Shown here in pieces: positions 21,283 through 64,000 of a stretch of 64,000 nt of DNA. The stretch is from assembly GCA_030448005.1 (NCBI GenBank), contig JAUJNT010000005.1:143885-207884 (forward strand), read 5' to 3'. Both the position numbers and the translations under genes were made by a program. Source of the DNA: Thermoleophilaceae bacterium (GTDB lineage: Bacteria > Actinomycetota > Thermoleophilia > Solirubrobacterales > Thermoleophilaceae). Below the pieces are notes generated by a model. That model did not search any database. It saw only the letters and a program-made list of their open reading frames with translations, and was not told the DNA's origin. Position 1 is the first letter of the stretch. Each line of letters starts with the position of its first letter.

Positions 21283-22020
21283 GTGTTCGAGGACAGCCTC
21301 AGGCGGATCTCGGAGCGCCTCGATGACTCGGCGAGGGTGCTGGACGTCGGGGGATGGGCACGTCCGCTCAACCGTGCTGACTGGGTGCTAGACCTCATGC
21401 CCTACGACAGCCGCGGGATGCTCGGGCACGACGGGGAGGGCAGCGAGCGCTTCAGCTCGGGCACCTGGGTCGAGCGGGACATCTGCGCGCGCGAGCCGTG
21501 GCCGTTTGAGGACGGGTCCTTCGACTTCGTTGTCTGCTCGCACACGCTCGAGGATGTGCGGGACCCCGTATGGGTCTGCGCGGAGCTGCAGCGGGTGGCG
21601 CGGGCCGGCTACATCGAGGTTCCCTCGCGCCTCGAGGAGCAGTCGCGGAACGTGCAGGGTCCGTGGGTGGGATGGGGACACCACCACTGGCTGATCGACG
21701 TGGGGGACGATGACATCAGCGTCGTGTTCAAGCCGCACATCCTCGGCGGCATCCCCGGCTCCGCCTTCCCGGCCGGCTTTGCCGACGCTCTACCCGCCGC
21801 CGACCGGCTACAGATGCTCTGGTGGGAAGGCGGCTTCGGCTGTCGCGAGCGCCTCTTCTACGAGCCCGAGAAGCTGAACGCCTACCTCACGGGCTTCGTG
21901 GCAGACAACCTCGACCGCGTGCCGGCACCTGCGGCGGGCCGCCCTGCGGTCAAGCTTCCGGGTGCTGCGCAGAAGCTGCTCAGGCGAGCCCGGGCCGCCG
22001 CGCGCGCACGATCAGGCTGA
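21283..22020 (+). CDS. Methyltransferase-fold protein (Methyltransf_11-like)
   Basis: 245 residues from GTG 21283. ARVLDVGGWARPL replaces the usual GxGxG of motif I (GGWARP), while PWPFEDGSFDFVVCSHTLEDVRDP keeps the motif IV region. The aromatic-rich GWGHHHWL segment and a basic C-terminus (KLLRRARAAARARSG) follow. SAM binding is plausible but the altered motif I leaves activity uncertain. The last 41 bp overlap the convergent two-domain methyltransferase gene. Confidence 0.7.
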   Translation: MFEDSLRRISERLDDSARVLDVGGWARPLNRADWVLDLMPYDSRGMLGHDGEGSERFSSGTWVERDICAREPWPFEDGSFDFVVCSHTLEDVRDPVWVCAELQRVARAGYIEVPSRLEEQSRNVQGPWVGWGHHHWLIDVGDDDISVVFKPHILGGIPGSAFPAGFADALPAADRLQMLWWEGGFGCRERLFYEPEKLNAYLTGFVADNLDRVPAPAAGRPAVKLPGAAQKLLRRARAAARARSG

Positions 22021-23668
22021 GGCCGACCGGCGGGCGCAGGCGCCGCTCGAGCGGGCGCCAGCCGGCCACGGCTAGCTCATAGGCGCGCAGGGAGAGCGGC
22101 CCTATCTCGCGCGAGCCGGCCCGATTCTTCAGCCACCAGCCCGGGATGCCGAGCGCGTTGAAGTGCTGGAGTCGCTCCACCTCGAGACCGGCCTGCTCGA
22201 CCAGGCCGCGCAGCATCCGCGGCGTGTAGCGGCGGTGGTGGCCGTAGGCGCGGTCGAGCGGGCCGAAGAGCCCGGGGTGCGCGGGCACCAGCAGCGCAAG
22301 CAGACCTCCGGCGCGAAGGGCGGCGGCCATGGCGGCCACGGCCCCCGCGTGGTCCTCGATGTGCTCGAGCACGTTCTGGCAGAGCACGAGGTCGAACTCG
22401 CCAGCCCGCCGCGCGAGCGTGGGAGAGTCGGGCAGCTCCTCACGCACGAGGCTCACCCGCGGATCACCGGCGTACCGGCGCTCTAGCACGCCCGCGCAGC
22501 CCGCTTCGGGCTCGATCTGGACCAGCTCGGCAACTCCCGCTTGGAGCAGCCGGTCGCTGAACGTGCCGATCCCGGCGCCGACCTCCACCACGCGCCCCCG
22601 GGCGGCGTCTGCGAACTGCTCGAACATCCAGTCGCCGAGGCGCCGAGCGCCCGCCAGCGTCTCGAGCTCCTCGAGCACCGCGCGCTCGGTGGAGCGCACC
22701 GCCTCGGGGCGGCGAGGGAGCCTCGGCGGCGCGGCCCGCGGGCGGCTATCCCGGATCGGGCCCTCACGCCTGACCGCGTAGAGGCAGAACTTCGTTCTCG
22801 GGTCGAGCTCGAAGGTCAGCTGCCCGAGCGCACGGCCGCGCAGCGCGGGGCGCAGCAGCCCGGCCGCGGCGGGCGCCGCCGGTGAGACGTCCTCGAGCAG
22901 GGTCTCGAGGGTGGAGCGCTTGCCGATCGAGTGCCAGCCCTCGGGCTCGAAGCCGTTGTCCTCGAGCGCGCTCGCGAGCCCCTCCACCGAGAACAGCACG
23001 ATGTGCTCCGGCGGGCGCTGCACCTCGGGCCAGCGGGCTCCGAGGGCGCGGCTGACCGGGGAGCCCGCGTCGGGGGTGAGGATCGCCAGGGCCCCGCCGG
23101 GGCGCAGCACGCGCGCCGCCTCGGCCAGCAGCGAGCGCGGATCGCCGACGTGCTCCACCAGGTCGAGCATCGAGACGGCGTCGAGCTCACCGTCGGAGAG
23201 CCCGGCGTCCGCGAGGCTCCCGTGGCGCACGTCCGCACCGAGCTCGTCGCGCGCGTAGGCGGCAGCCCAGGCGTTCAGGTCGACGCCCGCGGCCTCCCAG
23301 CCGCGGTCGCGGGCGGCGGCCACCAGGAAGCCGGGCCCGGCCCCGACGTCGAGCAGGCGACCGGGCGCCACGAGGCGCTCGAGGTGACCGAGGACCTGCT
23401 CGAACTTCTCGGTGATCTCCCGGCGGTCTGCCAGGTAGTCGCGGTAGCCGTGGAAGGCGCCGCTGCCCGGCGGCCCGAAGCCCGCATCCACGAAGTAGCG
23501 CTCGCCCTCGTACTGGTCGGCCACCGCGTCCGGCGGCTGCTCGAGGAAGAGGCTGCGGCAGGCCGTGCAGCGCCGGAAGGCGTGACCGGAGACCGTCATG
23601 GCCGGCCGGGAACCGCCGGCCCGGCACGCCGGGCAGCTCGTGAGGATCGAGCTCAGCGAAGCCGGCAT
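21980..23668 (-). CDS. Two-domain SAM methyltransferase with N-terminal zinc ribbon
   Basis: 562 residues from ATG 23668, inside the last codons of the upstream GT2 gene (16-nt overlap). CPAC (12-15) and CTAC (34-37) form a zinc ribbon. A first methyltransferase domain has motif I LLDVGAGPGFL (105-114) and MLDLVEHVGDP. A second complete domain starts near residue 340, with VVEVGAGIGTFS (about 360-371) and CQNVLEHIEDH. Both motif I copies are intact, so both domains could be active and the enzyme could methylate two positions of one glycan. The longer open frame upstream is antisense or out-of-frame to the GT2 gene and was rejected. Confidence 0.82.
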   Translation of the reverse strand: MPASLSSILTSCPACRAGGSRPAMTVSGHAFRRCTACRSLFLEQPPDAVADQYEGERYFVDAGFGPPGSGAFHGYRDYLADRREITEKFEQVLGHLERLVAPGRLLDVGAGPGFLVAAARDRGWEAAGVDLNAWAAAYARDELGADVRHGSLADAGLSDGELDAVSMLDLVEHVGDPRSLLAEAARVLRPGGALAILTPDAGSPVSRALGARWPEVQRPPEHIVLFSVEGLASALEDNGFEPEGWHSIGKRSTLETLLEDVSPAAPAAAGLLRPALRGRALGQLTFELDPRTKFCLYAVRREGPIRDSRPRAAPPRLPRRPEAVRSTERAVLEELETLAGARRLGDWMFEQFADAARGRVVEVGAGIGTFSDRLLQAGVAELVQIEPEAGCAGVLERRYAGDPRVSLVREELPDSPTLARRAGEFDLVLCQNVLEHIEDHAGAVAAMAAALRAGGLLALLVPAHPGLFGPLDRAYGHHRRYTPRMLRGLVEQAGLEVERLQHFNALGIPGWWLKNRAGSREIGPLSLRAYELAVAGWRPLERRLRPPVGLSLIVRARRPGLA

Positions 23669-24342
23669 CGCACGAGCGTGGCCATCAGGCGCGCGCCGTC
23701 GGCCGCGGTCAGCTTCTTGCCCTCCTCGCGCGAGCGGGCGGAGTAGGTGACGGGCACCTCGTAGATCTTGTAGCCCGCCCGCAGGAGGCGCGCCGGGATC
23801 TCGGCGTCGATCCCGAAGCCGTCCTCGCTCAGATCGAGGGAGCGCAGCGTCCGGGTCTCCCCCACCTTGAAGCAGTTGCAGATGTCGGAGAGCCAGCTGT
23901 TGTAGAGCATGTTGGCCGCCAGGTTGATCACCCGGTTGCCTGCCACGTACCAGAAGCCATAGGCGGAGTGCGATTGAAAGAGCCGCGTGCCGATCGCTGC
24001 GTCGGCCTTCCCCTCCAGCAGGGGATCCAGGAGCAGCCTGATCTCGCCCGGGTCGTACTCCAGGTCGGCGTCGATGATCGCCGACCAGTGCCCGCTCGCG
24101 TGCTCGAGCCCGGTCCTGATGCCGGCGCCCTTGCCGCGGTTGTGGTCCACCTCGATGATCCGCACGGAGTCCGGCCACGTGCGCGCGGACAGCACCTCCG
24201 CTGTGCGGTCGGTCGACCCGTTCTGCACGAGCACCAGCTCGACGTCGTCGACGGGGTAGTCGGCCGCGAGGACGCGCTCGATCGCGCGGGCGATCGTGGC
24301 CTCCTCGTTGTAGGCCGACATGAGGACGGACAGGTCGGCCAC
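23653..24342 (-). CDS. Family 2 glycosyltransferase (DPM1/polyprenyl-phosphate type)
   Basis: 229 residues: MADLSVLMSAYNEEATIARAI, VLVQNGSTDRTAEVL, NRGKGAGIRTGLEHA, the DxD site IIDADLEYDPGEI and GFGIDAEIPARLLRAGYKIYEVPV. This short single-domain form is typical of polyprenyl-phosphate mannose/glucose synthases without C-terminal membrane helices. It lies 14 nt after the MoaD-like gene on the same strand, so it may share the riboswitch-controlled transcript. Confidence 0.88.
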   Translation of the reverse strand: MADLSVLMSAYNEEATIARAIERVLAADYPVDDVELVLVQNGSTDRTAEVLSARTWPDSVRIIEVDHNRGKGAGIRTGLEHASGHWSAIIDADLEYDPGEIRLLLDPLLEGKADAAIGTRLFQSHSAYGFWYVAGNRVINLAANMLYNSWLSDICNCFKVGETRTLRSLDLSEDGFGIDAEIPARLLRAGYKIYEVPVTYSARSREEGKKLTAADGARLMATLVRCRLR

Positions 24343-24356
24343 GTTCGGGCCGGTGA

Positions 24357-24632
24357 TCAGCCGCCGGCGACGGCCGGCAGGATCGTGACCTCGTCCCCAT
24401 CGTGCACGGCTGTGTCCAGCCCGTCGAGGAAGCGGATGTCCTCGCCGCCGACGTAGACGTTCACGAAGCGCCGCAGGGCGCCGTCCTCCGCGATGCGGGC
24501 GCTGAGGCCTTCGTAGCTCTCGTAGAGCCTGTCGAGCACGCCCTTCACGGTGCTCGCGCCCTCCACCGTGATCTCGGCGTCGCCGCCGGTCACGCTTCGC
24601 AGCTGCGTCGGGATCTTCACCGTCACGCTCAT
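24357..24632 (-). CDS. MoaD/ThiS-family sulfur carrier protein
   Basis: 91-residue ubiquitin-fold protein: MSVTVKIPTQLRSVTGG, VLDRLYESYEGL, FVNVYVGGEDIRFLDGLDTAVHDGDEVTILPAVAGG. The Gly-Gly C-terminus is the site of adenylation and thiocarboxylation in sulfur carriers such as MoaD, ThiS and CysO. It follows the threonine-synthase-like gene by 25 nt, and no molybdopterin or thiamin gene is near. The likely job is to deliver sulfur to that PLP enzyme, as CysO does for CysM in mycobacteria. The activating E1-like enzyme and a carrier protease are not in this window. Confidence 0.88.
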   Translation of the reverse strand: MSVTVKIPTQLRSVTGGDAEITVEGASTVKGVLDRLYESYEGLSARIAEDGALRRFVNVYVGGEDIRFLDGLDTAVHDGDEVTILPAVAGG

Positions 24633-50960: not shown

Positions 50961-51968
50961 TCAGCGGGCGAGCAGCCGCTTGACACGGCGCAGTGGGACG
51001 GTCACACGCCAGCTGAGCGACGAGGTGACCTCAGCCACGCGGTCTGCGTACAGGGCGCGCTCGCTCTCCACCAGATCGACCAGACGTCCCACCTCCTCCT
51101 CGCTTCGACGGAGCTGCACGTGCAGCTCGTCGAGCTCGGCGCCTGTCGTGCGCTGCTCCTCGAAGAGAGCCTTTTGGGCCATGAGCAGGTCCTGCTGCTT
51201 CTGGTAGAGCTCTAGCCAGCGCCGGACCTCAGCCAGACCCGTGGCCACCATGCGCACCGGGATGCTCGGGAGTGGCTGCCGGCTGGCGAGCACGATGGAG
51301 TAGGGCGCGCCGTCGTCCGTTGCGGATACCACCTGCGCCAACTCGGCCCTCGCGATGGGCTCGACCGCGAGCGACGCTCCCACGCCGCCCTCCAGCACGG
51401 CGGAGGCGATCAGATTTTGCTGCTGGCGGACCGCGGTGTACGGGAAGTGCCCCGCCAGGACCTTCTCGAGCTCCTCCGAGTAGAGCCCGGCAACGTTGTT
51501 CGGGCCGCCGGGCACGGAGGCATCCCGGTTCGGCCAAGAGATGGCAAGCACGCCACCGGGCGAGAGCACGCGCGCCAACTCGGTGATCGCTTCCTGTGCA
51601 CGGTCCAAGCGCTCGAGGACCTCGAAGCAGACGATCAGGTCGAAGCTCCCGTCCTCGAATGGCATGTCGTGGATGCCGGCGGTGACGAAGCGCGCTCCCT
51701 CCGCCGCGCCCCCCACCGCTGCCTCCAACACCGCCGCCGCGCTGTCCACCCCGACGGTCTCGACTGCCCCGGACGCGGCGAGGAGGTTGGTCCCGTGTCC
51801 GAGCCCGCAACCCGCATCGAGCACGCGGCGACCCTCCGCGATGCCGGCAGACCACCAGTAACGGGCCAGCTGCTCGGCCTCGATCAGCTCGCCGCGCGTG
51901 GTATCCGGAACGAAGCGCTCTGGCACCTCGTCCATCCGATTCGACACATCGACGTGCACGTCGGGCAA
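50961..51968 (-). CDS. Class I SAM methyltransferase with C-terminal coiled coil and SxSWR tail
   Basis: 335 residues. Methyltransferase domain first: VLDAGCGLGHGTNLLAASG (motif I), VGVDSAAAV, FDLIVCFEVLERLDRAQEAI, LSPGGVLAISWPN. From about residue 245 there is a coiled coil (LYQKQQDLLMAQKALFEEQRTTGAELDELHVQLRRSEEEVGRL), ending in SSLSWRVTVPLRRVKRLLAR. The tail matches that of the stand-alone coil protein at 48015. Divergent from the glycosyltransferase at 52003, with only 34 bp between starts. Confidence 0.82.
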   Translation of the reverse strand: MPDVHVDVSNRMDEVPERFVPDTTRGELIEAEQLARYWWSAGIAEGRRVLDAGCGLGHGTNLLAASGAVETVGVDSAAAVLEAAVGGAAEGARFVTAGIHDMPFEDGSFDLIVCFEVLERLDRAQEAITELARVLSPGGVLAISWPNRDASVPGGPNNVAGLYSEELEKVLAGHFPYTAVRQQQNLIASAVLEGGVGASLAVEPIARAELAQVVSATDDGAPYSIVLASRQPLPSIPVRMVATGLAEVRRWLELYQKQQDLLMAQKALFEEQRTTGAELDELHVQLRRSEEEVGRLVDLVESERALYADRVAEVTSSLSWRVTVPLRRVKRLLAR

Positions 51969-52002
51969 GGTATCTCACCTTTTGCCCTGGGATCATTGCG
52001 CC

Positions 52003-53925
52003 ATGGAGCTGGCTTTTGTCCTGGCGCGCCGCCAGAACCACTTCTTCGTGGAAACGGTTGCCGCGATCCGCGACGAGCTAGATCAGATCGGTGTGTCATC
52101 GAGTGTTCACACCGGGAGCTATCCGACCGAGCGCGACGATCTCATCTACGTCCTGATCCCGCCACACGAATGGTTCAGCCTGGAGGGTTGGCGGGCGCCT
52201 CCCACCACCAACCAGCTCGCCCGGACCATCTTCATCTGCGCGGAGCAGCCCGGAACCACGTTCTTCGAAGACGACGTACGCCTTGGCCCATTGGCGGGCG
52301 GCGTGTTCGATATCAACGCCGGCTCCATTCGGGAGCTCCGGCGACGGGGGGTGCCCGGCGCGCGACCTCTGCGCCTGGGATGGACTCGCACCTGGGCGCA
52401 CGCGCCCGTGGGCCCGGACGGCATGCCCGATCCTCAGGCCGAACGCGACATCGATGTGCTTCACCTCGGGATCTTCAGCGACCGAAGGGCGATCTCGTTG
52501 GCGGCGGGCGCTCGCTGGCTCTCGGAGTGGCGCTGCCATCTGGTTCTCGGCGACCAGGAGGGACCGAACGCGAAGGACAAGGCCAACTTCGCCACCGGCG
52601 ATTCCAAGTGGGATCTCCTGACGCGGTCGAGGCTGCTGCTGAACATCCACGTATCGGAGCGTCCGTACTTCGAGTGGATGCGCGTGGTGCAGGCAATCGG
52701 CTGCGGATGCTCGATCGTCAGTGAGCACTCCGTAGGCGAGGATCCGCTCGTACCCGGCGAGCACTTCCTGTCCGCGCGTTCGGAAGCACTGGGGCTGGTC
52801 GCACACGGGCTCCTCTCGAACGAGGAGCTGCGGGCGCTGATCTCCCGCCGCGCCTACCATTTCCTGCGCACCGAGCTCCCCTTCTCGGCGTCAGTGGCCG
52901 GGCTGGTCGAGATGGCTGAGGAGCTTGCCGCACGACGGCGTCGCGAGGGTCCGCGCAAGCCGCGGCAGCTTCCAGAGCTCGTGGTGCGACCTGTCTCCGA
53001 CAGGGGTGCCCCTGGAGTGCCGACGCGGTACCCGGCCACGACGGCCGACAGCGAGTCCTCCGCGCTGCGCGCTGCGCTAAAGGACGTGCGCCTGGACCTG
53101 CTTCAGCTTGGGCGCGATGTCGCGCGCTTGCGGCGGGAGAGCGCTGCTGGGCGGCCGCTGCCGGCGGTCGAGGTGGATCGAGCCTCAAGCGGGTATGGCC
53201 CCGCCAAGCCTCGGGTCACAGTGGTCACCCCCCTCTACAACCACGAGCACCACATCGAGGCCGCCTTGGACTCGGTTGCGCGAGGGCGCTACCAGGATCT
53301 CGAGTTGGTCGTGGTAGACGACGGGTCGACCGACGGATCGTTGGACGCCGCGCGGCGATTCGTGAAGGCCCACGAGGGTCTGGCAGTCCTGCTTCTGCGT
53401 CATCCCTGGAACCGCGGGCTCGGATCGGCGCGGAATACTGGCCTTGACTTCGCCCGGGGGGAGCTCGCGTTCATGCTCGACGCAGACAACGAGGTCTTTC
53501 CTCGGGGGCTCGCGCGGGTGGTCGAGGCACTCGACGACAAGCCGCACGCGGCGGCCGCCTACGGCATGCTCGGCATGTTCTCGAGTGAGGGGCCCGTGGG
53601 CCTTCGTTCCTACTATCCGTGGGAGCCCGAGCGGTTCAGGGCGGGCAACTTCATCGACGCGATGGCGTTGTGGCGGACGTCGGTGATTCGTGGCCTGGGT
53701 GGCTATACCCGCGACGGCCGCCTACACGGGTGGGAGGATTACGACCTGTGGTGCCGGCTCGCCGAGAGCGGCGGGACCGGCGAGCTGGTCCCGGAGGTGG
53801 TCGCGCGCTACCGGGTATCTCGCACGTCCATGCTGTCCCTCACGAACATCTCGGAGACGAACGCGCTGTCAGTGTTGATCGAACGGTACCCGCGGGTGAT
53901 GGCGGGCGTCGATCCGCCGGCGTAG
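52003..53925 (+). CDS. Two-domain glycosyltransferase: GT-B-like N-terminus + GT2 C-terminus, copy 2
   Basis: 640 residues from ATG 52003. The N-terminal part (about 1-310) has MELAFVLARRQNHFFVETVAAI, then IDVLHLGIFSDRRAISLAAGA, LNIHVSERPYFEWMRVVQAIGCGCSIVSE and LVPGEHFLSAR, the donor half of a CgeB-like GT-B. A coil-like linker follows. The GT2 domain (about 405-635) has PRVTVVTPLYNHEHHIEAALDSV, VVVDDGSTDGSLDAA, GLGSARNTGLDFARGELAFMLDADNEVFP and GWEDYDLWCRLAE. Same architecture as 48321; the two are clear paralogues. Confidence 0.85.
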   Translation: MELAFVLARRQNHFFVETVAAIRDELDQIGVSSSVHTGSYPTERDDLIYVLIPPHEWFSLEGWRAPPTTNQLARTIFICAEQPGTTFFEDDVRLGPLAGGVFDINAGSIRELRRRGVPGARPLRLGWTRTWAHAPVGPDGMPDPQAERDIDVLHLGIFSDRRAISLAAGARWLSEWRCHLVLGDQEGPNAKDKANFATGDSKWDLLTRSRLLLNIHVSERPYFEWMRVVQAIGCGCSIVSEHSVGEDPLVPGEHFLSARSEALGLVAHGLLSNEELRALISRRAYHFLRTELPFSASVAGLVEMAEELAARRRREGPRKPRQLPELVVRPVSDRGAPGVPTRYPATTADSESSALRAALKDVRLDLLQLGRDVARLRRESAAGRPLPAVEVDRASSGYGPAKPRVTVVTPLYNHEHHIEAALDSVARGRYQDLELVVVDDGSTDGSLDAARRFVKAHEGLAVLLLRHPWNRGLGSARNTGLDFARGELAFMLDADNEVFPRGLARVVEALDDKPHAAAAYGMLGMFSSEGPVGLRSYYPWEPERFRAGNFIDAMALWRTSVIRGLGGYTRDGRLHGWEDYDLWCRLAESGGTGELVPEVVARYRVSRTSMLSLTNISETNALSVLIERYPRVMAGVDPPA

Positions 53926-53932
53926 CGCGGAG

Positions 53933-55012
53933 CTAGCGAGCGCGCTTGTATGCGAAGTAGGCGGGCTTGCGCTGGCCCTCGTATGTCATGAGGCCGTCTG
54001 TGAGCCCACGTGGCACTGTGACCGGGTCGTCGAGAAGACCGATCCACCCGAGCCCCGCGATATAGGGCTCCTGGCGCGCGATCCGGTATGCGGCGCTCAA
54101 GAACCGCGCCTGCTGCGTTCGGCTGACGAAGAAATCGAAGGCGTAGTTCGCCCGGTCGGATGAGATCGTGTACTCGGACAGCCAGAGCCGGGGTCCGCGG
54201 TGCCGGAAGGCGCGAGAGGTGCGCCTGTAGGCTCCTCTGACCTCGCTCGCAAAGGTGTCGATGTCGCTCATGTCCCGGGCGCCCGGAGAGCCGCGGTACC
54301 CGCGGAGGCGCAGGTCGGGAAACCGCGGTGAGAACGGGTTGTGCCCGTACCAGTCGAGCGGGGGGCGCTTGCCGTTTGCGAGGCGCATCCAGCGCACGAA
54401 GTCACGGGGTTTGACCGGGCCGAAGCTGAACGTCATGCCCCCGATCACGATGTTCCTTCGGCTGTCCCGCTTGAGGGCTCTGTACGCCGCGTTGAGCAGA
54501 GTGGCGTAGCGCCGCGGCCCGACCGGGCTGTTCGCCGGCAGAGGGCGGAAGACGGCGGCGCGATTGGTCTCACCCCAGACCATCCACAGGTTGACCGACG
54601 GGTATCGTCGGCTCGCCGCCGTCAGGAAGCGGGCGTAATCCGAGTTGTTCGGCGCCCACTGCGGGCCGCGACCACCGTTGGACCAGCGGGGAGAGCCCTT
54701 GACCATGATCGCCACTTTGATCCCGTAGCGGCGCCCTGCCCGGACGGCCGCGTCCACTTGCTTCGGCCAAGTGTACGCCGGATCGTCCGGGTTGGTGGGG
54801 TTCGCCGGACGCGACGGGGCGGCGTCGAGCCACTCCAGCTGTACCTGGAAGACTTGGGCTCCAAGGTCCCTGTAGACGCGGAATGCCGGCGATCCGTCCG
54901 GCATCTCTACCGGCCCCCAGATGGCCTTGACGCTGCGCGCCGACGCCGTCGGCGGCAGGGCGCAAGCCAGCAGCAGGCAGACCACGCCAAGGATGATTGA
55001 AGTCTTTCTCAC
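53933..55012 (-). CDS. Secreted glycoside-hydrolase-like (TIM-barrel) protein, intact copy
   Basis: 359 residues from GTG 55012, preferred over ATG 55051 because the second copy starts with ATG at the matching residue and the signal peptide (RKTSIILGVVCLLLACALPPTASA) then sits at the N-terminus. Barrel-type motifs follow: IKVAIMVKGSPRW, NLWMVWGETNR (E148, position of the acid/base Glu in NEP-type clan A enzymes) and LWLSEYTIS (candidate nucleophile Glu). Likely cleaves or remodels an extracellular polysaccharide, but no GH family is assigned. A broken paralogue lies at 60044. Confidence 0.72.
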   Translation of the reverse strand: MRKTSIILGVVCLLLACALPPTASARSVKAIWGPVEMPDGSPAFRVYRDLGAQVFQVQLEWLDAAPSRPANPTNPDDPAYTWPKQVDAAVRAGRRYGIKVAIMVKGSPRWSNGGRGPQWAPNNSDYARFLTAASRRYPSVNLWMVWGETNRAAVFRPLPANSPVGPRRYATLLNAAYRALKRDSRRNIVIGGMTFSFGPVKPRDFVRWMRLANGKRPPLDWYGHNPFSPRFPDLRLRGYRGSPGARDMSDIDTFASEVRGAYRRTSRAFRHRGPRLWLSEYTISSDRANYAFDFFVSRTQQARFLSAAYRIARQEPYIAGLGWIGLLDDPVTVPRGLTDGLMTYEGQRKPAYFAYKRAR

Positions 55013-55097
55013 GGTGGTGCCAACAGCCGGGCTGGGGAAAGTTGCGCTCACTCGGTGGAGTGGCGCGGCACTCCTAAGTTATCTGCGGTCGGGTGCC

Positions 55098-58000
55098 TCA
55101 ACGTGGTGGCAACCCAAACGCCTCGCGCGGATCGCGCGCCACCTTCTTGAGGCCCTCGTCGCGCGGGTTGAGCCTCGACGCTCGACGGTAGGCCTTGCTG
55201 GCTTGAGCCAGGTCGCCTCGTCTAACCGCCAGGTCTCCAAGCAGGCCCCAGGTCACGAAATCGTGGGGCTCGCGCCGCGCGGCCTCGAGTAGTGACGCTC
55301 GGGCGCGGGGGTAGTCGTTCACTCGTGCGTAGGCCGACGCCCGGGCGTAGTAGGCCTGGAGTGATTCATCGTTCAGGGCCAGCGATTCTCCCGCCTTTTC
55401 AACCGCTGCCTTGGGATCCTCTTGTACGAGATCCTGGGCGTCTGCGCGGTACTTGTCGGCCAGAGTGGCCCGACCGACCAGCACCGCGCCGGCCAGCACC
55501 ACGAGAGCGCAGGCGCCGATGACGGCCAGCCGCAGCGGCGAGCGCTCGTTCCCGGCGAGAGCGCGCGTCCATGGCGCCACGAGCACCGCCGCGCCGCATA
55601 GTGCGATTCCGGTTACTCCCGGGATCAGGTGTAGCCAGTCGACGCTCGTGTGCACGGCCCAGACCAGAAACATGCCGCCGGCCGCAACGGTCAGACCGAG
55701 GTCGAGCCGGCTGTCCCGCGCGGCACGCACGCGGCGCGCGAAGCCGGCAAGGATCCCGCCCACAAAGAGGAGGAGCCCGAATCCGCCGACCAGGCCCAGT
55801 TCTCCGAGCGTCTGAAGCGGCAGGCTGTGCGCTTGGCGCACGTCCTCCAGAGTGCGACGCTCCAGGAAATAGGTGCGATCGTAGTTACCCGCGCCGACGC
55901 CCTCGACCGGGTTGTCGGCGAACTGATTCACGGCCACCCGCCAGTAGTCATACCGGTTGCCGCCCCCCGAGGTGAAGCGAGTGCTCGTCTCTGCCGACGC
56001 GTCGGGATCGAGGTTCTGGAAAGCCCGAGCCTGATCTCGCACCTTGCCGATGGGATCGCCGACCGCCACGACGCCACCGATCAAGATCACGGCCGCAATC
56101 CCAGCCAGTGCGACCCCCGAGGCCATGCCGAGCTCACGCGGCCGGGTCTCAGCTGCGCGTGCACAGACCCGCCGTGCAAGAGCCCACACCACCCCGGTGA
56201 GCAGGACCGTGCCCAGCAGTGCCACCACCGCGGTCCGGATGCTGGCTGGATCCGGAGCACCGGAACCAGAGGTGCTGTCATACACGTCCAGCAGGGGGCC
56301 CGCGGCAACGGCAACTCCGGCGGCGATCGCTATCAACACCCACAACCGCCCGTGCCGGCCCGGTAGGAGGGCCACGAGCACGACCGCGCTGACGATGACC
56401 GCCGGCAGGACCGCGCGGGTCTGGCAGAGCAACGTGAGCCCCACGAGCAGGGTTGCCATCCCCACCGCTGCTCCGGACAGGGCGTGCGAGCGCGCTCGTT
56501 CGGCGAGCGCGACGAGCGGCCACAGCGCCAAGAGCAGGTAGCCCGCCTGACCGTTGACGTAGCCGAGCGGTTCGAAGAGCCGTTGCTGCAGGAAGAGATC
56601 CTCAGCACCGGGGGACAGCAGCCGCACACACAGGTAAAGGCCGAAGACCGCGACGGCTACGGTGGCCGCACCCACCAGCAGCACGCCCAAGCGGTCGTCA
56701 CGAAGCAGAAGGACCAGCACCGCGAAGAGTGCCGCATAGAGCAACCACCGGTTGGCTTCGATCAACGCCTGGTCGGCCGATTCCGCCCAACCGATGGACA
56801 GCAGCGACCAGAGCCAGAGGAAGACGAGTCCCCCAACCGCGATGAGGGCTGAAGCCCGGGGCGCCGCCGGCCGGGCGATGACGAGCCCCAGCAGTGCTGC
56901 CAGCACGAACAGGGCTACCGGGCCCCATACGGACAGGCGATAGAAGCCGAAGAACGCCGGGCTCAATCCGCAGATTGCGGGAATGAAGACGATGACGGCC
57001 CCCTCGACGAGGCTGGGCGAGCGCCGACCCCCCGGGCGGCCCGGGTCACCGACGGGCCTCGCCGGCCCGGGCTCACCGACCGGCGGTGCCGCGTTTGTCC
57101 GGTCGGGTGCCCACGAACGCGTCTCGAGCACCACCACCGCGGCGGTGGCGACCACGAACCAGATCGCCCACGCGGAGACGATCGAGCCCTGCCCCAGTTC
57201 GATCACGCCGATCGCCAAGGCGCCCAGCAGGGCCTGGATCGTTCCAAGCGTGAGAGCCACCGTTCGCGCCGAGCCCAGCCGCGTGGCCAGCCGATGCGTC
57301 ATGTGGTCGCGCCCGCCCATGAGCAGCGGCACAGCGGCGCGCCGGCGGGAGATCATCACGAGCGCGGTGTCCACCACAGGTAGACCCGCGAGGATCAGCG
57401 CCGCCAACACCCCGGGCAGGCCGATGCCGCCGCCGTTCGGCAGCGCCATGATCGTGGCGGCCACCACGAACCCCACCGGTAAGCTTCCGCCGTCGCCGAG
57501 GAAGATCCGTGCCGGGCCCGCGAGGTTGTACGGGAGAAACCCGGCGCAGGCCCCTGACATGCAGATGCACAGGATGGCCAGCTCCACGTCACCCTGGATC
57601 CACGCGAGGATCCCGGTGGCCATAGCCGTCACGGTGCCGACGGTGGCGGCGGCGCCGTCCATGTTGTCCATCAGGTTGAAGGCGTTCAGAAGGCCAACCA
57701 CCCACAGGTTCGTGATCAGCAGATCGAGCGCACCCGACTCGAAGAGCGACCATCCGAGACCTGTGGCCCACAGCACGGTGGCCGCGCCGAACTCAACCGC
57801 GAGTCGCAGTGCCGGCGAGAGATTGAGCTTGTCGTCGACCGTGCCCAGGCACCAGATTCCGAACGTGCAGATGACGATGGGCGACAGGCGAGACACCTCC
57901 CCTCCGAGCGTCACACCGGCCAGCAGGAATGCGGTCACCACCGCCGCGCCGCCGAGGTACGGCGTCGGGGAGCTATGGCCCTTGTAGCCGAATGGCCGGT

Positions 58001-58106
58001 CGTGAAAACCGGTCCTCCCCGCGACCGCGATCGCCACCGGCGTTGCCGCCAGCGAGGCCCCGAGCGCGAGCGCGAAGGCGACGATCAGGCGCGCTTCATC
58101 GGGCAA
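55098..58106 (-). CDS. Fusion: WecA/MraY-like phosphoglycosyltransferase + O-antigen ligase + TPR
   Basis: 1002 residues. The N-terminal ~325 form a polyprenyl-phosphate HexNAc-1-P transferase: FHDRPFGYKGHSSPTPYLGG (34-53), VDDK (90-93), NAFNLMDNMDG (141-151), FLGDGGS (202-208) and GRDHMTHRL (265-273) carry all Asp/His sites of the family. A Pro/Gly linker (about 335-365) joins an O-antigen-ligase-type (Wzy_C/WaaL) domain with around ten helices. Its extracellular loop contains NPVEGVGAGNYDRTYFLERR and QAHSLPLQTLGELGLVGG. The last ~120 residues are TPR-like. It would combine initiation and ligation of glycan assembly on one chain. A frameshifted second copy of the ligase/TPR part starts at 62952. 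Confidence 0.88.
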   Translation of the reverse strand: MPDEARLIVAFALALGASLAATPVAIAVAGRTGFHDRPFGYKGHSSPTPYLGGAAVVTAFLLAGVTLGGEVSRLSPIVICTFGIWCLGTVDDKLNLSPALRLAVEFGAATVLWATGLGWSLFESGALDLLITNLWVVGLLNAFNLMDNMDGAAATVGTVTAMATGILAWIQGDVELAILCICMSGACAGFLPYNLAGPARIFLGDGGSLPVGFVVAATIMALPNGGGIGLPGVLAALILAGLPVVDTALVMISRRRAAVPLLMGGRDHMTHRLATRLGSARTVALTLGTIQALLGALAIGVIELGQGSIVSAWAIWFVVATAAVVVLETRSWAPDRTNAAPPVGEPGPARPVGDPGRPGGRRSPSLVEGAVIVFIPAICGLSPAFFGFYRLSVWGPVALFVLAALLGLVIARPAAPRASALIAVGGLVFLWLWSLLSIGWAESADQALIEANRWLLYAALFAVLVLLLRDDRLGVLLVGAATVAVAVFGLYLCVRLLSPGAEDLFLQQRLFEPLGYVNGQAGYLLLALWPLVALAERARSHALSGAAVGMATLLVGLTLLCQTRAVLPAVIVSAVVLVALLPGRHGRLWVLIAIAAGVAVAAGPLLDVYDSTSGSGAPDPASIRTAVVALLGTVLLTGVVWALARRVCARAAETRPRELGMASGVALAGIAAVILIGGVVAVGDPIGKVRDQARAFQNLDPDASAETSTRFTSGGGNRYDYWRVAVNQFADNPVEGVGAGNYDRTYFLERRTLEDVRQAHSLPLQTLGELGLVGGFGLLLFVGGILAGFARRVRAARDSRLDLGLTVAAGGMFLVWAVHTSVDWLHLIPGVTGIALCGAAVLVAPWTRALAGNERSPLRLAVIGACALVVLAGAVLVGRATLADKYRADAQDLVQEDPKAAVEKAGESLALNDESLQAYYARASAYARVNDYPRARASLLEAARREPHDFVTWGLLGDLAVRRGDLAQASKAYRRASRLNPRDEGLKKVARDPREAFGLPPR

Positions 58107-58305
58107 GCTGCCGTTCCTTCACCGCGATCGAGTACGTTCATTTCCGCAAGAGTCCCCAGCCTTTTCCGGGATGCGCATTCATGGTGCGCTCCATTGCCTA
58201 TGTCCCACGCCGCCCATAAGGCGCGCACAGCGAGGTGCTGATGCTACCCACCTGACGAGCCGTCAGCGACCCCTTCAGGTAGGTATCACGCCTCCCGTAC
58301 GGAAA

Positions 58306-59298
58306 TCAGACGAGCCTTGCGGCGGGGATCTCAAGTCCTCCCTGGCGTTCGCTCTCGATGACATCGCCGAGGATCTGGTCGAGGTTCCGCGTTGGACTCC
58401 ACCCAAGAACGCGCTCGATCTTCGAGAGGTCCGGAACCCGCCGCGGCATGTCTTCAAACCCCGGCTCGTAGGCATCGTCGTAGGGGACCAGGCTCACCTC
58501 TGACTCTGAGCCCGCCGCCTCTCGTACGCGGTGCCCAAGATCAAGGATCGAGATCTCCTCCGTGGAACCGACGTTGAAGACCTCCCCGGCGAGATCTTCC
58601 CTACTCATCAGGTCACACAGGGCCCTCACCACGTCACTCACATGGCAGAAGCAGCGGCTCTGGGTCCCGTCGCCATAGACGGTTATCGGCTTGCCCGCGA
58701 GTGCTTGGCGGGCGAAGCTGGGCACGACCATCCCGTACCGGCCAGTCTGGCGCGGCCCCACCGTGTTGAACAGACGGGCGACGACCACCGGAAGCTGCTT
58801 TTCCTTGAAGTAGGCGATCCCGAGATACTCGTCCAAGGCCTTTGAGCAGGCATACGCCCACCGGCCCATGTTCGTCGGCCCGAGCAGCAGATCTCCGTCT
58901 TCCCGAAACGGCAGCTTCTCTCCCTTGCCGTACACCTCGCTCGTCGAGGCGATCAAGACCGGCTTCTTCTTCTTGTTCGCAAGCCTGAGCACCACCTCGG
59001 TGCAATGCACGTTCGTCTCGATGGCGCGCACCGGACTCTCGACGATCAATTCGACGCCGACAGCCGCAGCGAGGTGGTAGACCACGTCCGCATCGTCGAC
59101 CAGCTCGGCCACGATCGACGGAGCGCCCGCCGACTCGATCGTGTACCCGAAGGCATCCCTGTCCTTCAGGTGCCGGATGTTGTCGATCGAGCCAGTCGAG
59201 AGGTCATCGAGGACGTGGACCCGATGGCCCCGCTCGAGCAGCTCGTCCGCCAGGTGAGAGCCGATGAAGCCCGCCCCGCCGGTAATCAGGAAACGCAC
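58306..59298 (-). CDS. NAD-dependent sugar epimerase/decarboxylase (extended SDR)
   Basis: 330 residues. MRFLITGGAGFIGSHLADELLERGHRVHVLDDLSTG is followed by YHLAAAVGVELIVESP and STSEVYGKGEKLPFRED. WAYACSKALDEYLG carries the catalytic Tyr/Lys. RLFNTVGPRQTGRYGMVVPSFARQALAGKPITVYGDGTQSR is typical of the UDP-glucuronate decarboxylase/4-epimerase branch. Likely makes a UDP-pentose or epimerised UDP-hexose for the cluster. Its 5' end abuts an IS3 remnant (13 bp away), so the native promoter may be disrupted. Confidence 0.9.
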   Translation of the reverse strand: MRFLITGGAGFIGSHLADELLERGHRVHVLDDLSTGSIDNIRHLKDRDAFGYTIESAGAPSIVAELVDDADVVYHLAAAVGVELIVESPVRAIETNVHCTEVVLRLANKKKKPVLIASTSEVYGKGEKLPFREDGDLLLGPTNMGRWAYACSKALDEYLGIAYFKEKQLPVVVARLFNTVGPRQTGRYGMVVPSFARQALAGKPITVYGDGTQSRCFCHVSDVVRALCDLMSREDLAGEVFNVGSTEEISILDLGHRVREAAGSESEVSLVPYDDAYEPGFEDMPRRVPDLSKIERVLGWSPTRNLDQILGDVIESERQGGLEIPAARLV

Positions 59299-59311
59299 TG
59301 TCCTCCTCCAT

Positions 59312-59911
59312 TAGTCCGCGCAGATGCGCGCACGACGATCCGGGTGCCGGGCCTCGTCCCGGCCGATGACCTCGTCGAGCGCGACTTCAACCCGAGCGCC
59401 TCGAACGAGCTGTGGGTCGCCGACCTGAAGCAAGTCGAGACCGCAGAGGGCAAGCTCTACCTCGCCGCGGTCACCGACTGCTTCTCGCGGCGGGTCGTCG
59501 GGTGGGCGAGGGAGGCCCACATGCGCGCAGAGCTCCTCGTCACCCGCGCTCGAGATGGCGCTCGCTCGCCGGCGCCCGCAGACCGGTGTGATCCATCACT
59601 CCGACCACGGATCGCAATACACCTCGCTCGCGTTCGGGCGCACCTGCCGCGAGGCGAGGATCGCGAAATCGATGGGATCGGTAGGCGATTGTTTCGATAA
59701 CGCTCTCGCCGAGTCCGTGTCGGCGACGCTCACCACGGAGCTGCTCGCCCGCAACCCGTTCGCCACCCGCGCCCAGGCGCGCACGGCGATCTTTGATACC
59801 TCGAGGCGTTCTACAGCCCGATCCGCCGCCACTCCTCACTCGGCAACATCTCACCCGCCGAGTACGAACGACGAGCCGCCCAGAACGCCGCCGTCCCGGT
59901 CCCCCGCCTGA
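59312..59911 (+). pseudogene. IS3-family transposase (OrfB) remnant
   Basis: Lacks its N-terminal part: it begins RADARTTIRVPGLVPADDLVERDF and continues NELWVADLKQVETAEGKLYLAAVTDCFSRRVVGW (first catalytic Asp). HHSDHGSQYTSLAFG (second Asp) and GDCFDNALAES (Glu) follow in another frame, and YSPIRRHSSLGNISPAEYERRAAQN in a third. Single-base losses near 59550 and 59797 account for the frame changes. All DDE residues are still recognisable, so decay is recent. No element ends were identified. Confidence 0.82.
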
Positions 59912-59974: not shown

Positions 59975-60043
59975 CAACCCAACCCCTACCTTCAAACCCA
60001 AGTCAACCCGTGTCCACGCGAACGGGGGAGGTCCACAGCGGGT

Positions 60044-60951
60044 CTACCGAGCCCGCTTGTAGGCGAAGTAAGCGGGCTTGCGCTTCCCCTCATGTGTCAT
60101 GAGACCGAATGTGATACCCCCGGGCACGGTCACCGGTTCGTCAAAGAGGCCGATCCACCCAAGGCCCGCGATGTAGGGCTCGCGGCGCGCGATCCGGTAG
60201 CCCGCGCTCAGGAACCGCGCCTGCTGCGCCCGGCTGACGAAGAAGTCGAAATGGAGATTGGCCCGGTCCGAGGAGATCGTGAACTCGGAAAGCCAGAGCC
60301 GCGATCCGCGCCTCCGGAAGGCGGGATACCGGCGCTTGTAGTCTGCCTGACCTCCGCAGCGAAGGTGTCGATGTCCCTCATGTCCCGGGCGCCCGGATAG
60401 CCGCGGAAGGGTGTGGCGGAGATCGGGAAAGCGCTGGGAAAACGGGTTGTGCCCATACCAGTCGAGCGGAGGTGGCTTTCCGTTTGGCAGGCGCATCCAG
60501 CGCAGGTAGTTACGGGGCCTGACGGGCCCGAAGCTCAAGGTCATGCCCCGATCACGATGTTCCTCGGTCTACGGCGCTTGAGCGCTCCGTATGCCGCGTT
60601 CAACAGGGTCGCATAGCGCCGCGGCCCGACGGGGTTGTTCGTCGGCAACGGCCGGAACACGGCGGCCCGGTTCGTCTCGCCCCAGATCATCCACAGGTTG
60701 ACCGAGCCGTAACGCCGACTCGCTGCTGTGAGGAAGTTGGCGTAATCCGAGTTGTTGGGGGCCCGCGAGGACGACCACCGTTGGCCCACGGCGGCGAACT
60801 CTTCACCATCACCGCGACCTTAATCCCATATCGGCGGCCCTCTCGAACGGCATCGTCCACAGATTGCCTTCACGCTTCGCACCGACGCGGTTGGGACCTC
60901 GGCACAGGCAAGCAGGCACACCATGCCCAGAGTGAGCAGTATCTGCCTCAT
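60044..60951 (-). pseudogene. Decayed paralogue of the secreted glycoside-hydrolase-like gene
   Basis: Starts ATG 60951 MRQILLTLGMVCLLACAEVPTASVRSVKAI, matching the intact gene's signal peptide. About 55 codons are then missing before VDDAVREGRRYGIKVAVMVKSSPPWANGG. A frame change follows to PNNSDYANFLTAASRRYGSVNLWMIWGETNRAAVF, another at 60541, and a scrambled stretch near 60350-60420 (RHTLPRLSG in place of RLRGYRGSP). The end SDRANLHFDFFVSRAQQARFL...KPAYFAYKRAR is well conserved. The internal deletion plus several frameshifts show true loss of function. Confidence 0.88.
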
Positions 60952-61202
60952 CGAGGGTCTAAACGGCGAGGTCGGGGAGAGTTGCGGTTGGTGACGGAGG
61001 CGCTGGCTCATCGGCGCCGCGTTCGAGGCGTCCAAGCGTAACTCGTGCCCACGCACCGCTCCGGCCAGAACGGCAAGGGCGCAGGTCATGACCCCGGCCA
61101 ACGAAGCACGATTCGTTGCTCTTCCTGTACCTCTTGCCGCCACCACGGCGCGAGGCGAACGGCTGCACCGCACAGACCGCTGTCTGTGCATAATGCCTTC
61201 TC

Positions 61203-62858
61203 GTGAGATCGTGGCCAAGGAGGGCCGCCGCGCTGATGGGCTTACACGCCCTGGCCGTGGCGCAGCCGGTGCTTTCACTGACCACCGACTCACCAGATCT
61301 CTTCATCGCCCGGAAGTCACCGGACCTCGCCGTGATCGCCTTCGGGTTGTGGATGGTGGTCGGAATTCCGGTCCTTCTGCTCGCGGGCGAGCGAGCAGCG
61401 GCTTCGATCCGCGAAAGCGTGGGCTGGCGACTGCACCTCGTCATCCTCGGCGCCTACCTCTCCCTGCTTGCGCTGACGGTCTTGAAGCGAGCCGACGCGA
61501 GCCTCTCGCTGCGAGCCGGTATCGACGTCGCGGGGTGGGTGCTGATCCTCGTGGCTCTCGTCGTCGCCGCCCTTCTCGTGCGTCTGTTCAAGGACTATGC
61601 CATTGCTCATTCGTACGTCGAGTTCCTCGGCCTCGCCGCTCCTGCCTTCTTCGTGATGTTCTTGGTTCAAGCGCCGCTTGAAGGTGTGACGCCGAGCGAG
61701 GCCCGGCAGGCGACGCGACCCGCGCCGGTGGTGCTCGTCATCTTCGACGAGCTCCCCACCGCGTCGCTGTTGGATCCGGACGGGCGTATCGACCGGCGAC
61801 GGATGCCGGTCTTCGCGCGACTCGCAGCCACGTCGAGCTGGTTCTCGTCTGCCACGACCGTGGCGGATGCTACCTCGCGCGCCGTGCCGGCGATCCTGTC
61901 CGGACGCCAGCCATCGCCCTCACAACGTCCGACCGCGCGTGACTGGCCCACCAACGTATTCAGCCTGCTGCGCGGCCAGTACACCGAACGCTCGCTCGAG
62001 CCCGCCACGCATCTGTGCCCCGAGAGGACCTGCCGCGACAATGTGCCGGGCGTCGCGCGAGCCACCGGATCGCTCATCCGCGACTCGGGGCGGATCATGC
62101 CGAAGGTCACCGCCCCGACCGATCTGGCAGAGCGTCTTCCTCCCATCCTGGGAGAGCAGGGAACGCTGAAGGACCCGAGCGAGGACGTCGAGCGCTTCCT
62201 GGCGGGGCTCCGGCCGGAGAGGCGCCCTGCCCTATCGGTGCTGCATGTCAATCTGCCGCACCACCCGTGGCGCTACCTCCCGAACGGCCGCCGCTACAGG
62301 GCAGCAGGCGAAAGCGCGCTGCCACGAGGATTCCGAGATCCGCTCTGGACCTCCGATGCCGGAGTCGTCCAGGCCAACTGGCGCCGCCACCTCCTGCAGG
62401 CGGGATATGCCGACACCGTCCTCGGGAAGATCCTGCGGCGCCTGCGCCGGGTAAGGATGCTCGAGCGGTCACTGCTCATCGTGACCGCCGACCACGGCAT
62501 CAGCTTCGAGCCGGGTCACGAGGCGCGCCGCGCCACACCGAGGAACCTGGGCGGCGTCGCTCTGGTTCCGCTCTTCGTAAAGCTCCCTCACCAGACTCGC
62601 GGCACCCGGGTCGCCGACCACGCAGAGACGATCGACATCCTGCCGACCATCCTCGATGCCGTGGGCGCCGAGCCGGGCACGCTTCAAGGCAGGTCGCTAC
62701 TGAAGGCGCACCGGCCTTCGCGCCAAGTGGCGGTCCTTTCCTCCGACGGGTCGACCGTTCGGACGCCACTGAGCGCCGCGCTGCGTCAGCGCCGAGCGGT
62801 CATTCGAGCCCAGGAGGCACTTCCAGAAGGGCTCCCGGCCCGCTTTCGAAGAAGATAG
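61203..62858 (+). CDS. Membrane-anchored sulfatase/phosphoglycerol-transferase-like protein
   Basis: 551 residues, GTG start. Four or five N-terminal membrane helices (to about residue 155) precede an extracytoplasmic alkaline-phosphatase-superfamily domain. VVLVIFDELPTASLLD holds the first metal Asp, SWFSSATTVADATSRAVPAILSGRQ the nucleophile Thr/Ser region, HVNLPHHPWRYLP, and LLIVTADHGISFEPGHEARR the DHG metal site. Resembles LtaS/EptA-like enzymes that transfer or hydrolyse phospho- or sulfo-groups on surface polymers. It lies, in opposite orientation, between the two halves of the decayed duplicate segment. Confidence 0.78.
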   Translation: MRSWPRRAAALMGLHALAVAQPVLSLTTDSPDLFIARKSPDLAVIAFGLWMVVGIPVLLLAGERAAASIRESVGWRLHLVILGAYLSLLALTVLKRADASLSLRAGIDVAGWVLILVALVVAALLVRLFKDYAIAHSYVEFLGLAAPAFFVMFLVQAPLEGVTPSEARQATRPAPVVLVIFDELPTASLLDPDGRIDRRRMPVFARLAATSSWFSSATTVADATSRAVPAILSGRQPSPSQRPTARDWPTNVFSLLRGQYTERSLEPATHLCPERTCRDNVPGVARATGSLIRDSGRIMPKVTAPTDLAERLPPILGEQGTLKDPSEDVERFLAGLRPERRPALSVLHVNLPHHPWRYLPNGRRYRAAGESALPRGFRDPLWTSDAGVVQANWRRHLLQAGYADTVLGKILRRLRRVRMLERSLLIVTADHGISFEPGHEARRATPRNLGGVALVPLFVKLPHQTRGTRVADHAETIDILPTILDAVGAEPGTLQGRSLLKAHRPSRQVAVLSSDGSTVRTPLSAALRQRRAVIRAQEALPEGLPARFRRR

Positions 62859-62951
62859 CTCGAAGACTGCCGTGAGCACGCCTGACCGCCCCCAACGCGC
62901 GGACGGGACGGCTGCCTTCGCTCTCGAGCAGCGGGGAGCGTCAGCCGCCTC

Positions 62952-64000
62952 TCAGCCCGATTGTGACTCGAGAACCGTGCGAGGATCGCGCGCAGCGCGG
63001 TGGAGCCCCTCGTCGCGCGGATTGAGCCGAGATGCCCGACGGTAGTCCCGTCGGGCCTGCGCCAGATCGCCGCGTCGGAGCGCCAGGTCCCCGAGCAGGC
63101 CCCAGGTCACGAAGTCGTGCGGCTCACGCCGCACCGCCTCGAGCAGGGAAGCTCGGGCTCGGCGATAGTCGTTCACACGCGCGTAGGCCGCCGCCCGCGC
63201 GTAGTAGGCGGGAAGCGACTCGTCGTTCAGGGCAAGGGAGTCCTCGCTCTTCTCGAGCGCCCTCGCGGGGTCGCTCTGCACGAGCTCCTCGGCGTCCGAG
63301 CGGTACTTGTCGGCGAGCGTGGCTCGCCCGACCAGCACGGCGCCGGCGATGACCACAAGTGCGCAGACAGCGATTGCGACGAGGCGCAGCGGCGAGTGCC
63401 GCTCGGCTGCCCCCACCCGCGCCCACGGCGCCACGAGAACCGCTGCGCCGCACAGGGCGATGCCCGTCAACCCCGGGATCAGGTGCAGCCAGTCGACGCT
63501 CGTGTGCACGAGCCATGTGAGGAACATGCCGCCGCCCGCGACGGCCAGGCCGAGATCGAGCGGACTCCGCCGCGCCGCCCTCACCCGCCGCGCGAAATCG
63601 GCGAGCACGGCACCCAGGAAGAGGAGGAGCCCGAGCCCACCGACCAGTCCGAGCTCGCCGAGCACCTGAAGCGGCAGGCTGTGCGCCTGGCGAACGTCCT
63701 CCGCCGTGCGGCGCTCGAGGAAGTAGGTGCGGTCGTAATTGCCGGCCCCGATGCCCTTGATCGGGTTGTCGCGGAACTGCTCGGCGCCTACGCGCCAGTA
63801 GTCGTAGCGGTTGCCCCGACCCGAGGTGAAGCGGTGCCGGACTGCGCAGTCGAGCGGGCATCGAGGTCTCTGAAGGCACGCGCCTCATCCCGCACCTTCG
63901 TCACGGGATTGCCGACCGCCAGCAGGCCGCCGACGACGAGCGCAACTCCGATAGTCACGAGCGCGGCGGCTGACGCGATGCCAGCCTGTCGCGGCCTCAC
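62952..64000 (-). pseudogene. Second copy of the O-antigen ligase/TPR region, frameshifted and truncated by the window edge
   Basis: From 62952 up to about 63830 the frame matches the C-terminal third of the 55098 fusion: RFTSGRGNRYDYWRVGAEQF, IKGIGAGNYDRTYFLERR, QAHSLPLQVLGELGLVGG, then the TPR part with RYRRASRLNPRDEGLH-like end. Beyond about 63833 the homologous sequence (KVRDEARAFRDLDARS) is in another frame, consistent with one missing base (CACCGC where CACCCGC is expected). Whether the copy also had a WecA-like N-terminus cannot be seen. It pairs with the decayed glycosidase copy at 60044. If the shift is an assembly error, the gene could be intact. Confidence 0.8.

What the first reader, a model, noticed from the sequence alone, without database searches (positions are those of the whole stretch)
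55098..58106. One-chain fusion of WecA-like transferase, O-antigen ligase and TPR
All signature Asp/His motifs of a polyprenyl-phosphate HexNAc-1-P transferase are followed by a full ligase-type membrane domain and TPRs. The first and last steps of lipid-linked glycan assembly are usually separate proteins. A fusion suggests direct hand-over or a self-contained pathway.
Basis: partly seen in the sequence, partly recalled or inferred. Interest (0 to 1): 0.65.

Follow-up and report, generated by a model that had tools for sequence, protein, structure and literature searches.

The report
Glycan starter fused to glycan ligase
One soil-actinobacterial membrane protein joins the enzyme that starts a surface sugar chain inside the cell to the enzyme that releases the finished chain outside, and relatives keep the two joined or side by side, which suggests that the first and last steps are coordinated.

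Summary
In detail: an open frame of 1002 codons on the minus strand (58106 to 55098) encodes a MraY/WecA-type polyprenyl-phosphate sugar-1-phosphate transferase, a cytoplasmic linker, a WaaL-type O-ligase membrane domain and C-terminal TPRs. It is not a frame artefact. The same fusion is full length in 12 of 232 Solirubrobacterales genomes and cut by a contig end in two more (8 genera, 2 families). Catalytic motifs are invariant and dN/dS is about 0.2. AlphaFold models match MraY (Z 32.7) and WaaL (Z 20.5). In Omnitrophota and Planctomycetota the same two genes are often adjacent, typically with a 4-nt ATGA overlap. The gene sits between a UXS-like sugar-nucleotide enzyme and a PslG-like secreted hydrolase; a decayed second copy of this module lies alongside.

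The two active sites face opposite sides of the membrane, and glycosyltransferases and flippases are separate proteins, so direct hand-over or a self-contained pathway is unlikely. More likely the fusion couples initiation and termination of one glycan pathway. Polytopic transferases are described as stand-alone; the nearest precedent is Brucella WadA (GT25–O-ligase). A new variant of a known kind. Whether the second half is ligase or polymerase remains open.

The parts
55098..58106 (-). PGT-ligase-TPR fusion gene, 1002 aa (stop codon 55098-55100)
   Evidence: open frame; Pfam; conserved full-length relatives
58115..58120 (-). Shine-Dalgarno-like GAAGGA, 8 nt before TTG start
   Evidence: sequence
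57126..58106 (-). residues 1-327: polytopic phosphoglycosyltransferase (MraY/WecA superfamily), 11 predicted TM helices, catalytic motifs D91-D92, N144/D147/N148/D150, GDGGS 204-208, D267-H268..T270-H271-R272
   Evidence: MraY fold Z 32.7, 283 residues
57000..57125 (-). residues 328-369: variable, positively charged, low-confidence linker, predicted cytoplasmic
55467..56999 (-). residues 370-880: WaaL-type O-ligase membrane domain
   Evidence: Wzy_C; WaaL fold Z 20.5, 380 of 403 residues
55794..56060 (-). residues 683-771: large extracellular loop with R718 and H760 (R564 lies in an earlier outer loop)
   Evidence: residue roles as in PMC10920833
55101..55439 (-). residues 890-1002: TPR domain, predicted outside
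   Evidence: TPR folds Z about 17
58306..59298 (-). NAD-dependent nucleotide-sugar decarboxylase/dehydratase/epimerase (SDR, ASTSEVYG motif), conserved neighbour
   Evidence: (UDP-glucuronate decarboxylase 1.4e-52)
53933..55051 (-). secreted PslG-like glycoside hydrolase, conserved neighbour, 46 nt downstream of the fusion
   Evidence: PslG 1.8e-6
60038..60860 (-). decayed second copy of the hydrolase gene (80% nt, frameshifted)
62979..63933 (-). decayed second copy of the ligase C-half and TPR (78% nt, frameshift further upstream)

Best explanation
A bifunctional membrane enzyme that both opens and closes one lipid-linked glycan pathway. [quoted passage not shown] Separate glycosyltransferases extend the glycan and a separate Wzx-type flippase turns it over. 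The C-terminal WaaL-type half then transfers it from polyprenyl diphosphate to a surface acceptor on the outer face, with the external TPR domain helping to hold the acceptor or a partner. The fusion does not pass the substrate directly; it fixes initiation and termination at a 1:1 ratio in one place, so that carrier lipid committed by the first half is released by the second, and keeps this pathway apart from the cell's other lipid-linked pathways. Shown here: the fusion, its conservation, intact catalytic residues. Predicted: both folds and the topology. Inferred: activities, coupling, acceptor.
For: Single conserved frame in 14 genomes (two of them contig-cut) of 8 genera. Invariant motifs in both halves. 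MraY fold Z 32.7, WaaL fold Z 20.5. Hydropathy puts the transferase loops and the linker inside, and R564, the 683-771 loop with H760, and the TPR outside. The Arg-Arg-His set is the O-ligase pattern; polymerases of the same clan mostly have Asp/Glu in place of the His (PMC10920833). Trees of the two halves agree broadly, so they travel together. In 10 of 25 distant loci a Wzy_C gene follows the transferase gene directly, seven with an ATGA overlap. Flippase genes are separate, within 7-25 kb on the same contig in 5 of 8 genomes. The genome has two other PF00953 genes and six other Wzy_C genes apart from the remnant, so cross-talk is possible. WadA of Brucella is a precedent for one chain working on both faces, and its essentiality was attributed to carrier sequestration (PMC9938171).
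Against: No biochemical or genetic evidence. Some close relatives have the two genes well apart or on opposite strands (L048, L086, L088), so physical linkage is not required. The acceptor is unknown, and these bacteria are not known to carry lipid A (own knowledge). The PslG-like neighbour suits a polymerised exopolysaccharide at least as well as a ligated glycan.
Confidence: 0.55

Rival explanations
1. The second half is a Wzy-type polymerase: the protein starts the repeat unit inside and polymerises flipped units outside into an exopolysaccharide trimmed by the PslG-like hydrolase.
For: It is the only intact Wzy_C gene on its 235-kb contig; the conserved neighbour resembles PslG of the Psl exopolysaccharide system; PF04932 covers both ligases and polymerases (own knowledge).
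Against: The His of the O-ligases is kept in 40 of 40 scorable rows; clan GT-C1 polymerases have Asp or Glu there, apart from GT127; WaaL is by far the best fold, though few polymerase structures exist.
Confidence: 0.25
2. The fusion is a near-neutral gene merger: both halves work, but nothing depends on their being joined.
For: Split relatives are nested among the fused genes in the trees (L048, L073, L017); the linker is variable; the two active sites act at different times.
Against: Kept at 42-70% identity across 8 genera; the pair is also tightly linked in distant phyla by gene overlap.
Confidence: 0.15
3. Direct hand-over of substrate between the two active sites.
For: Two steps of one pathway in one chain.
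Against: Active sites predicted on opposite faces; the product of step one must be extended and flipped by other proteins.
Confidence: 0.03

Closest known systems
WadA, bifunctional O-antigen ligase of Brucella (GT25 + O-Lig; PMC9938171, PMC10920833)
   Same: Cytoplasmic-face sugar transferase fused N-terminally to a WaaL-type ligase acting on the outer face; two faces, one chain.
   Different: The partner is a globular GT25 that finishes the lipid A core (the acceptor), not a polytopic transferase that starts the donor glycan; no TPR reported; Gram-negative.
MraY/WecA polytopic phosphoglycosyltransferases
   Same: Fold, motifs and about 11 TM helices.
   Different: Known members are described as 'PGT only' (Table 1 of PMC10942596); this one carries a ligase and TPR.
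WaaL / CAZy GT121 O-antigen ligases
   Same: Fold over 380 of 403 residues, Arg-Arg-His set, large outer loop.
   Different: Fused to the initiating enzyme, has TPR, acceptor unknown.
WsfB and PglL, predicted or known O-oligosaccharyltransferases with Wzy_C plus C-terminal TPR (PMC2943079)
   Same: Layout of the C-terminal half; WsfB is also from a Gram-positive.
   Different: No initiating transferase in the chain.
Bifunctional monotopic PGTs (Bi-PGTs, PMC10942596)
   Same: An initiating enzyme fused to another functional domain.
   Different: Different, unrelated transferase superfamily.

Membership tests
Polytopic PGT superfamily (PF00953) | Domain score over curated cut-off | tested here: met
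   101.4 bits vs 27
Polytopic PGT superfamily (PF00953) | Catalytic Asp pair, NxxDNxD, DGGS and HxxHR motifs | tested here: met
   near-invariant in 63 rows
Polytopic PGT superfamily (PF00953) | MraY fold | tested here: met
   Z 32.7, rmsd 2.5, 283 residues
WecA proper (TIGR02380) | Score over the model's cut-off | tested here: not met
   96.6 vs 326 bits
Polytopic PGT superfamily (PF00953) | Stand-alone, PGT-only architecture | tested here: not met
   fused; description from PMC10942596
O-antigen ligase (PF04932 / GT121) | Wzy_C score over cut-off | tested here: met
   53.2 vs 31.7 bits
O-antigen ligase (PF04932 / GT121) | Two diphosphate-binding Arg and an acceptor-activating His on the outer face | tested here: met
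   R564, R718, H760 in nearly all of 41 rows; equivalence inferred from motif context, not from superposed coordinates
O-antigen ligase (PF04932 / GT121) | WaaL fold | tested here: met
   7tpg Z 20.5, rmsd 4.5, 380 of 403 residues
O-antigen ligase (PF04932 / GT121) | Transfer of glycan to an acceptor; CAZy GT121 assignment | not testable with these tools
   no CAZy models or assay at hand
Wzy polymerase of clan GT-C1 | Asp or Glu at the position of the ligase His | tested here: not met
   His in 40 of 40 scorable rows; rule from PMC10920833, which exempts GT127
WsfB/PglL-type O-OTase | Wzy_C plus C-terminal TPR | tested here: met
   description in PMC2943079
WsfB/PglL-type O-OTase | Protein acceptor | not testable with these tools
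   needs glycoproteomics
WadA | GT25 domain N-terminal to the ligase | tested here: not met
   the N-terminal half is PF00953, no GT25-type match

The most novel reading that the evidence does not exclude
Initiating transferase and terminal ligase (or polymerase) of a lipid-linked glycan pathway form a physical start-finish unit that gates use of the shared carrier lipid; the fusion in Solirubrobacterales and the 4-nt-overlapping gene pairs in Omnitrophota and Planctomycetota are two forms of one general coupling not yet described.
Probability: 0.3. Interest if true: 0.7.

Novelty: new variant of a known kind. Interest (0 to 1): 0.45.

Why it matters
Carrier lipid is limited and shared between wall and surface-glycan pathways, and how cells keep each pathway from starting chains it cannot finish is unclear. 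A natural fusion of the first and last enzyme, with overlapping gene pairs in unrelated phyla, makes a start-finish coupling testable. It also gives a single protein on which both reactions could be studied, in a lineage whose surface glycans are little known.

Tried and rejected
Artefact of frame or assembly: rejected. Strict single clade of all fused genes: rejected (p-AU 2.8e-4 transferase half, 2e-8 ligase half), but only because split genes (L048, L073, L017) are nested inside; allowing those, one origin is not rejected (p 0.16 and 0.11). So one fusion with later splits, or several fusions: undecided. L090 (G280) was first counted as two adjacent genes; a run of N lies exactly in its linker, so it is undetermined and not used as evidence. 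Contig-cut rows L053, L075, L082 were removed from the tests. Fusion outside Solirubrobacterales: none in the samples of the class (299 genomes) and phylum (396) nor in the genome-contig scan, but that scan finds close relatives only and an independent fusion elsewhere is not excluded. A Planctomycetota-wide profile search could not be run. The whole-protein fold search was filled by MraY and TPR matches, so the ligase half was folded and searched alone. Papers: no description of this fusion found in the open-access library; subscription journals are not covered.

Full report
WHAT IS THERE. The gene lies on the minus strand, 58106 to 55098. It starts with TTG behind a GAAGGA Shine-Dalgarno and encodes 1002 residues. 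Pfam finds Glycos_transf_4 (77-220), Wzy_C (624-778) and TPRs (908-985). Codon-position G+C is steady over the whole frame, linker included, and dN/dS against the same-genus relative (L078) is 0.17 to 0.29 in every part: one gene under purifying selection.

CONSERVATION. Searches of the class, family and order found the full-length fusion in G000, G124, G420, G350, G367, G087, G178, G077, G401, G244, G368 (twice) and G369, and contig-cut frames holding both domains in G395 and G402: 14 of 232 Solirubrobacterales genomes, eight genera, two families, 42-70% identity to the window protein. G258 has a frame break near residues 62-69. Named relatives include Thermoleophilaceae YX3bin21 and Solirubrobacteraceae YX3bin10. 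None was found outside this order in samples of the class and phylum. The linker varies in length and sequence while both flanking domains stay aligned.

SPLIT RELATIVES AND HISTORY. In L083 and L084 the two genes overlap by about 27 nt in different frames; in L086 and L088 they are several kb apart on opposite strands; in L048 they are on one strand 1.2 kb apart. Trees of the two halves agree broadly, so the halves have mostly been inherited together. A strict clade of fused genes is rejected, but a clade of fused genes plus the nested split ones is not (p 0.16 and 0.11). One fusion followed by splits is therefore possible; several fusions are too.

THE PAIR IN OTHER PHYLA. Of 25 distant transferase loci from the genome-contig scan (L101-L125: Omnitrophota, Planctomycetota and others), ten have a ligase-like gene directly behind the transferase gene; Pfam confirms Wzy_C in all ten. 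Seven have the ATGA overlap of start and stop (L107, L112, L113, L116, L121, L122, L124); the other three have a possible start codon within about a dozen nt of the stop. These loci were picked by similarity to the transferase half and not to the ligase, but no background rate for transferase genes in polysaccharide clusters was measured. Translational coupling of the pair is inferred from the overlap.

ACTIVE SITES AND TOPOLOGY. Transferase motifs D91-D92, N144/D147/N148/D150, GDGGS and D267-H268/H271-R272 are near-invariant in 63 rows; ligase residues R564, R718 and H760 in 41 rows. AlphaFold2 gives pLDDT 80.5, pTM 0.79 for the whole chain and pLDDT 80.2, pTM 0.85 for the ligase half, on shallow alignments of 25 and 13 rows. 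The first half matches MraY (Z 32.7, 283 residues); the second matches WaaL 7tpg (Z 20.5, 380 of 403 residues), then FtsW/RodA (Z 9-13). Hydropathy with charge bias gives 11 helices for the transferase with catalytic loops and linker inside, and a ligase with R564, the loop 683-771 and the TPR outside. One ligase helix near residues 444-467 fell under the cut-off of that simple scan and was placed using the model. No dedicated topology program was available.

WHY NOT HAND-OVER. The first product forms on the inner face. It must be extended (separate GT2-type transferases lie in the window) and flipped. Flippases of PF01943 are separate genes in all eight fusion genomes examined, 6.7 to 24.5 kb from the fusion on the same contig in five. 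The ligase meets the glycan on the outer face. Linking start and finish in one chain therefore more plausibly sets ratio and place. The genome holds two other PF00953 genes (one presumably MraY, one WecA-like) and six Wzy_C genes besides the fusion and the remnant. Carrier sequestration by unfinished chains was proposed for Brucella WadA (PMC9938171).

LIGASE OR POLYMERASE. In CAZy clan GT-C1, O-ligases have His and most polymerases Asp/Glu at the acceptor-activating position (PMC10920833). This family has His. The same paper notes O-ligase family members in Gram-positives and proposes wall ligation of capsule for S. pneumoniae. Wzy_C with C-terminal TPR is the layout of WsfB and PglL (PMC2943079). 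Against a pure ligase stands the conserved PslG-like hydrolase next door, as found in exopolysaccharide systems. I put ligase or oligosaccharyltransferase ahead, about two to one.

NEIGHBOURHOOD MODULE. SDR (58306-59298), fusion and hydrolase (53933-55051) run in one direction with gaps of 199 and 46 nt. The SDR recurs beside the fusion or its parts in most loci (48-80% identity: L078, L079, L080, L081, L042, L083, L084, L086, L088, L090, L048), the hydrolase in L079, L080, L043, L045, L086, L088, L090, L087. The SDR is closest to UDP-glucuronate decarboxylases among solved structures, with motif ASTSEVYG; the exact product is not settled.

SECOND COPY. Next to the module lies a decayed copy in the same order: hydrolase remnant 60038-60860 (80% nt, frameshifted), ligase C-half remnant 62979-63933 (78% nt, frameshift upstream) and, beyond the window, an SDR copy at 99.2% over 1080 nt.

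NOVELTY. Polytopic transferases are summarised as 'PGT only' (PMC10942596), the authors of the WadA study called it, to their knowledge, the first bifunctional O-antigen ligase, and no paper found here describes this combination. It is a new domain combination of known enzymes: a new variant of a known kind.

Noticed in passing
window 60038-64000 and G000:C2 beyond the window (L038:13030-14108): Tandem second copy of the hydrolase-fusion-SDR module: first two genes decayed at about 80% nt identity, the SDR copy 99.2% identical, which suggests recent gene conversion or a repeated duplication.
   Followed up: partly
L107, L112, L113, L116, L121, L122, L124: Transferase and Wzy_C genes overlap by ATGA in Omnitrophota and related lineages.
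   Followed up: partly
L102, L113, L121: Another fusion: polytopic transferase followed by PF13727 (CoA_binding_3), the domain otherwise known from large monotopic PGTs such as WbaP; in L113 and L121 a Wzy_C gene follows.
   Followed up: no
L083 (JAFEFH010000067.1): Record titled Proteobacteria carries a module close to the Actinomycetota record L084; probably mislabelled or misbinned.
   Followed up: no
L045 / G258:C1 near 1887763: Fused gene with a frame break around residues 62-69 in a single-contig genome; sequencing error or young pseudogene.
   Followed up: no
G368 (contigs C187 and C56): Two full-length fusion genes in one genome.
   Followed up: no
window 59005-59700 (+): Integrase-core (rve) fragment beside the SDR, probably an insertion-sequence remnant between the two module copies.
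   Followed up: no
window 14233-53925: Long stretch rich in GT2 glycosyltransferases, methyltransferases and an SDR, including a protein with a methyltransferase domain twice (21980-24400) and one with GT1-like plus GT2 domains in one chain (51898-53925).
   Followed up: partly
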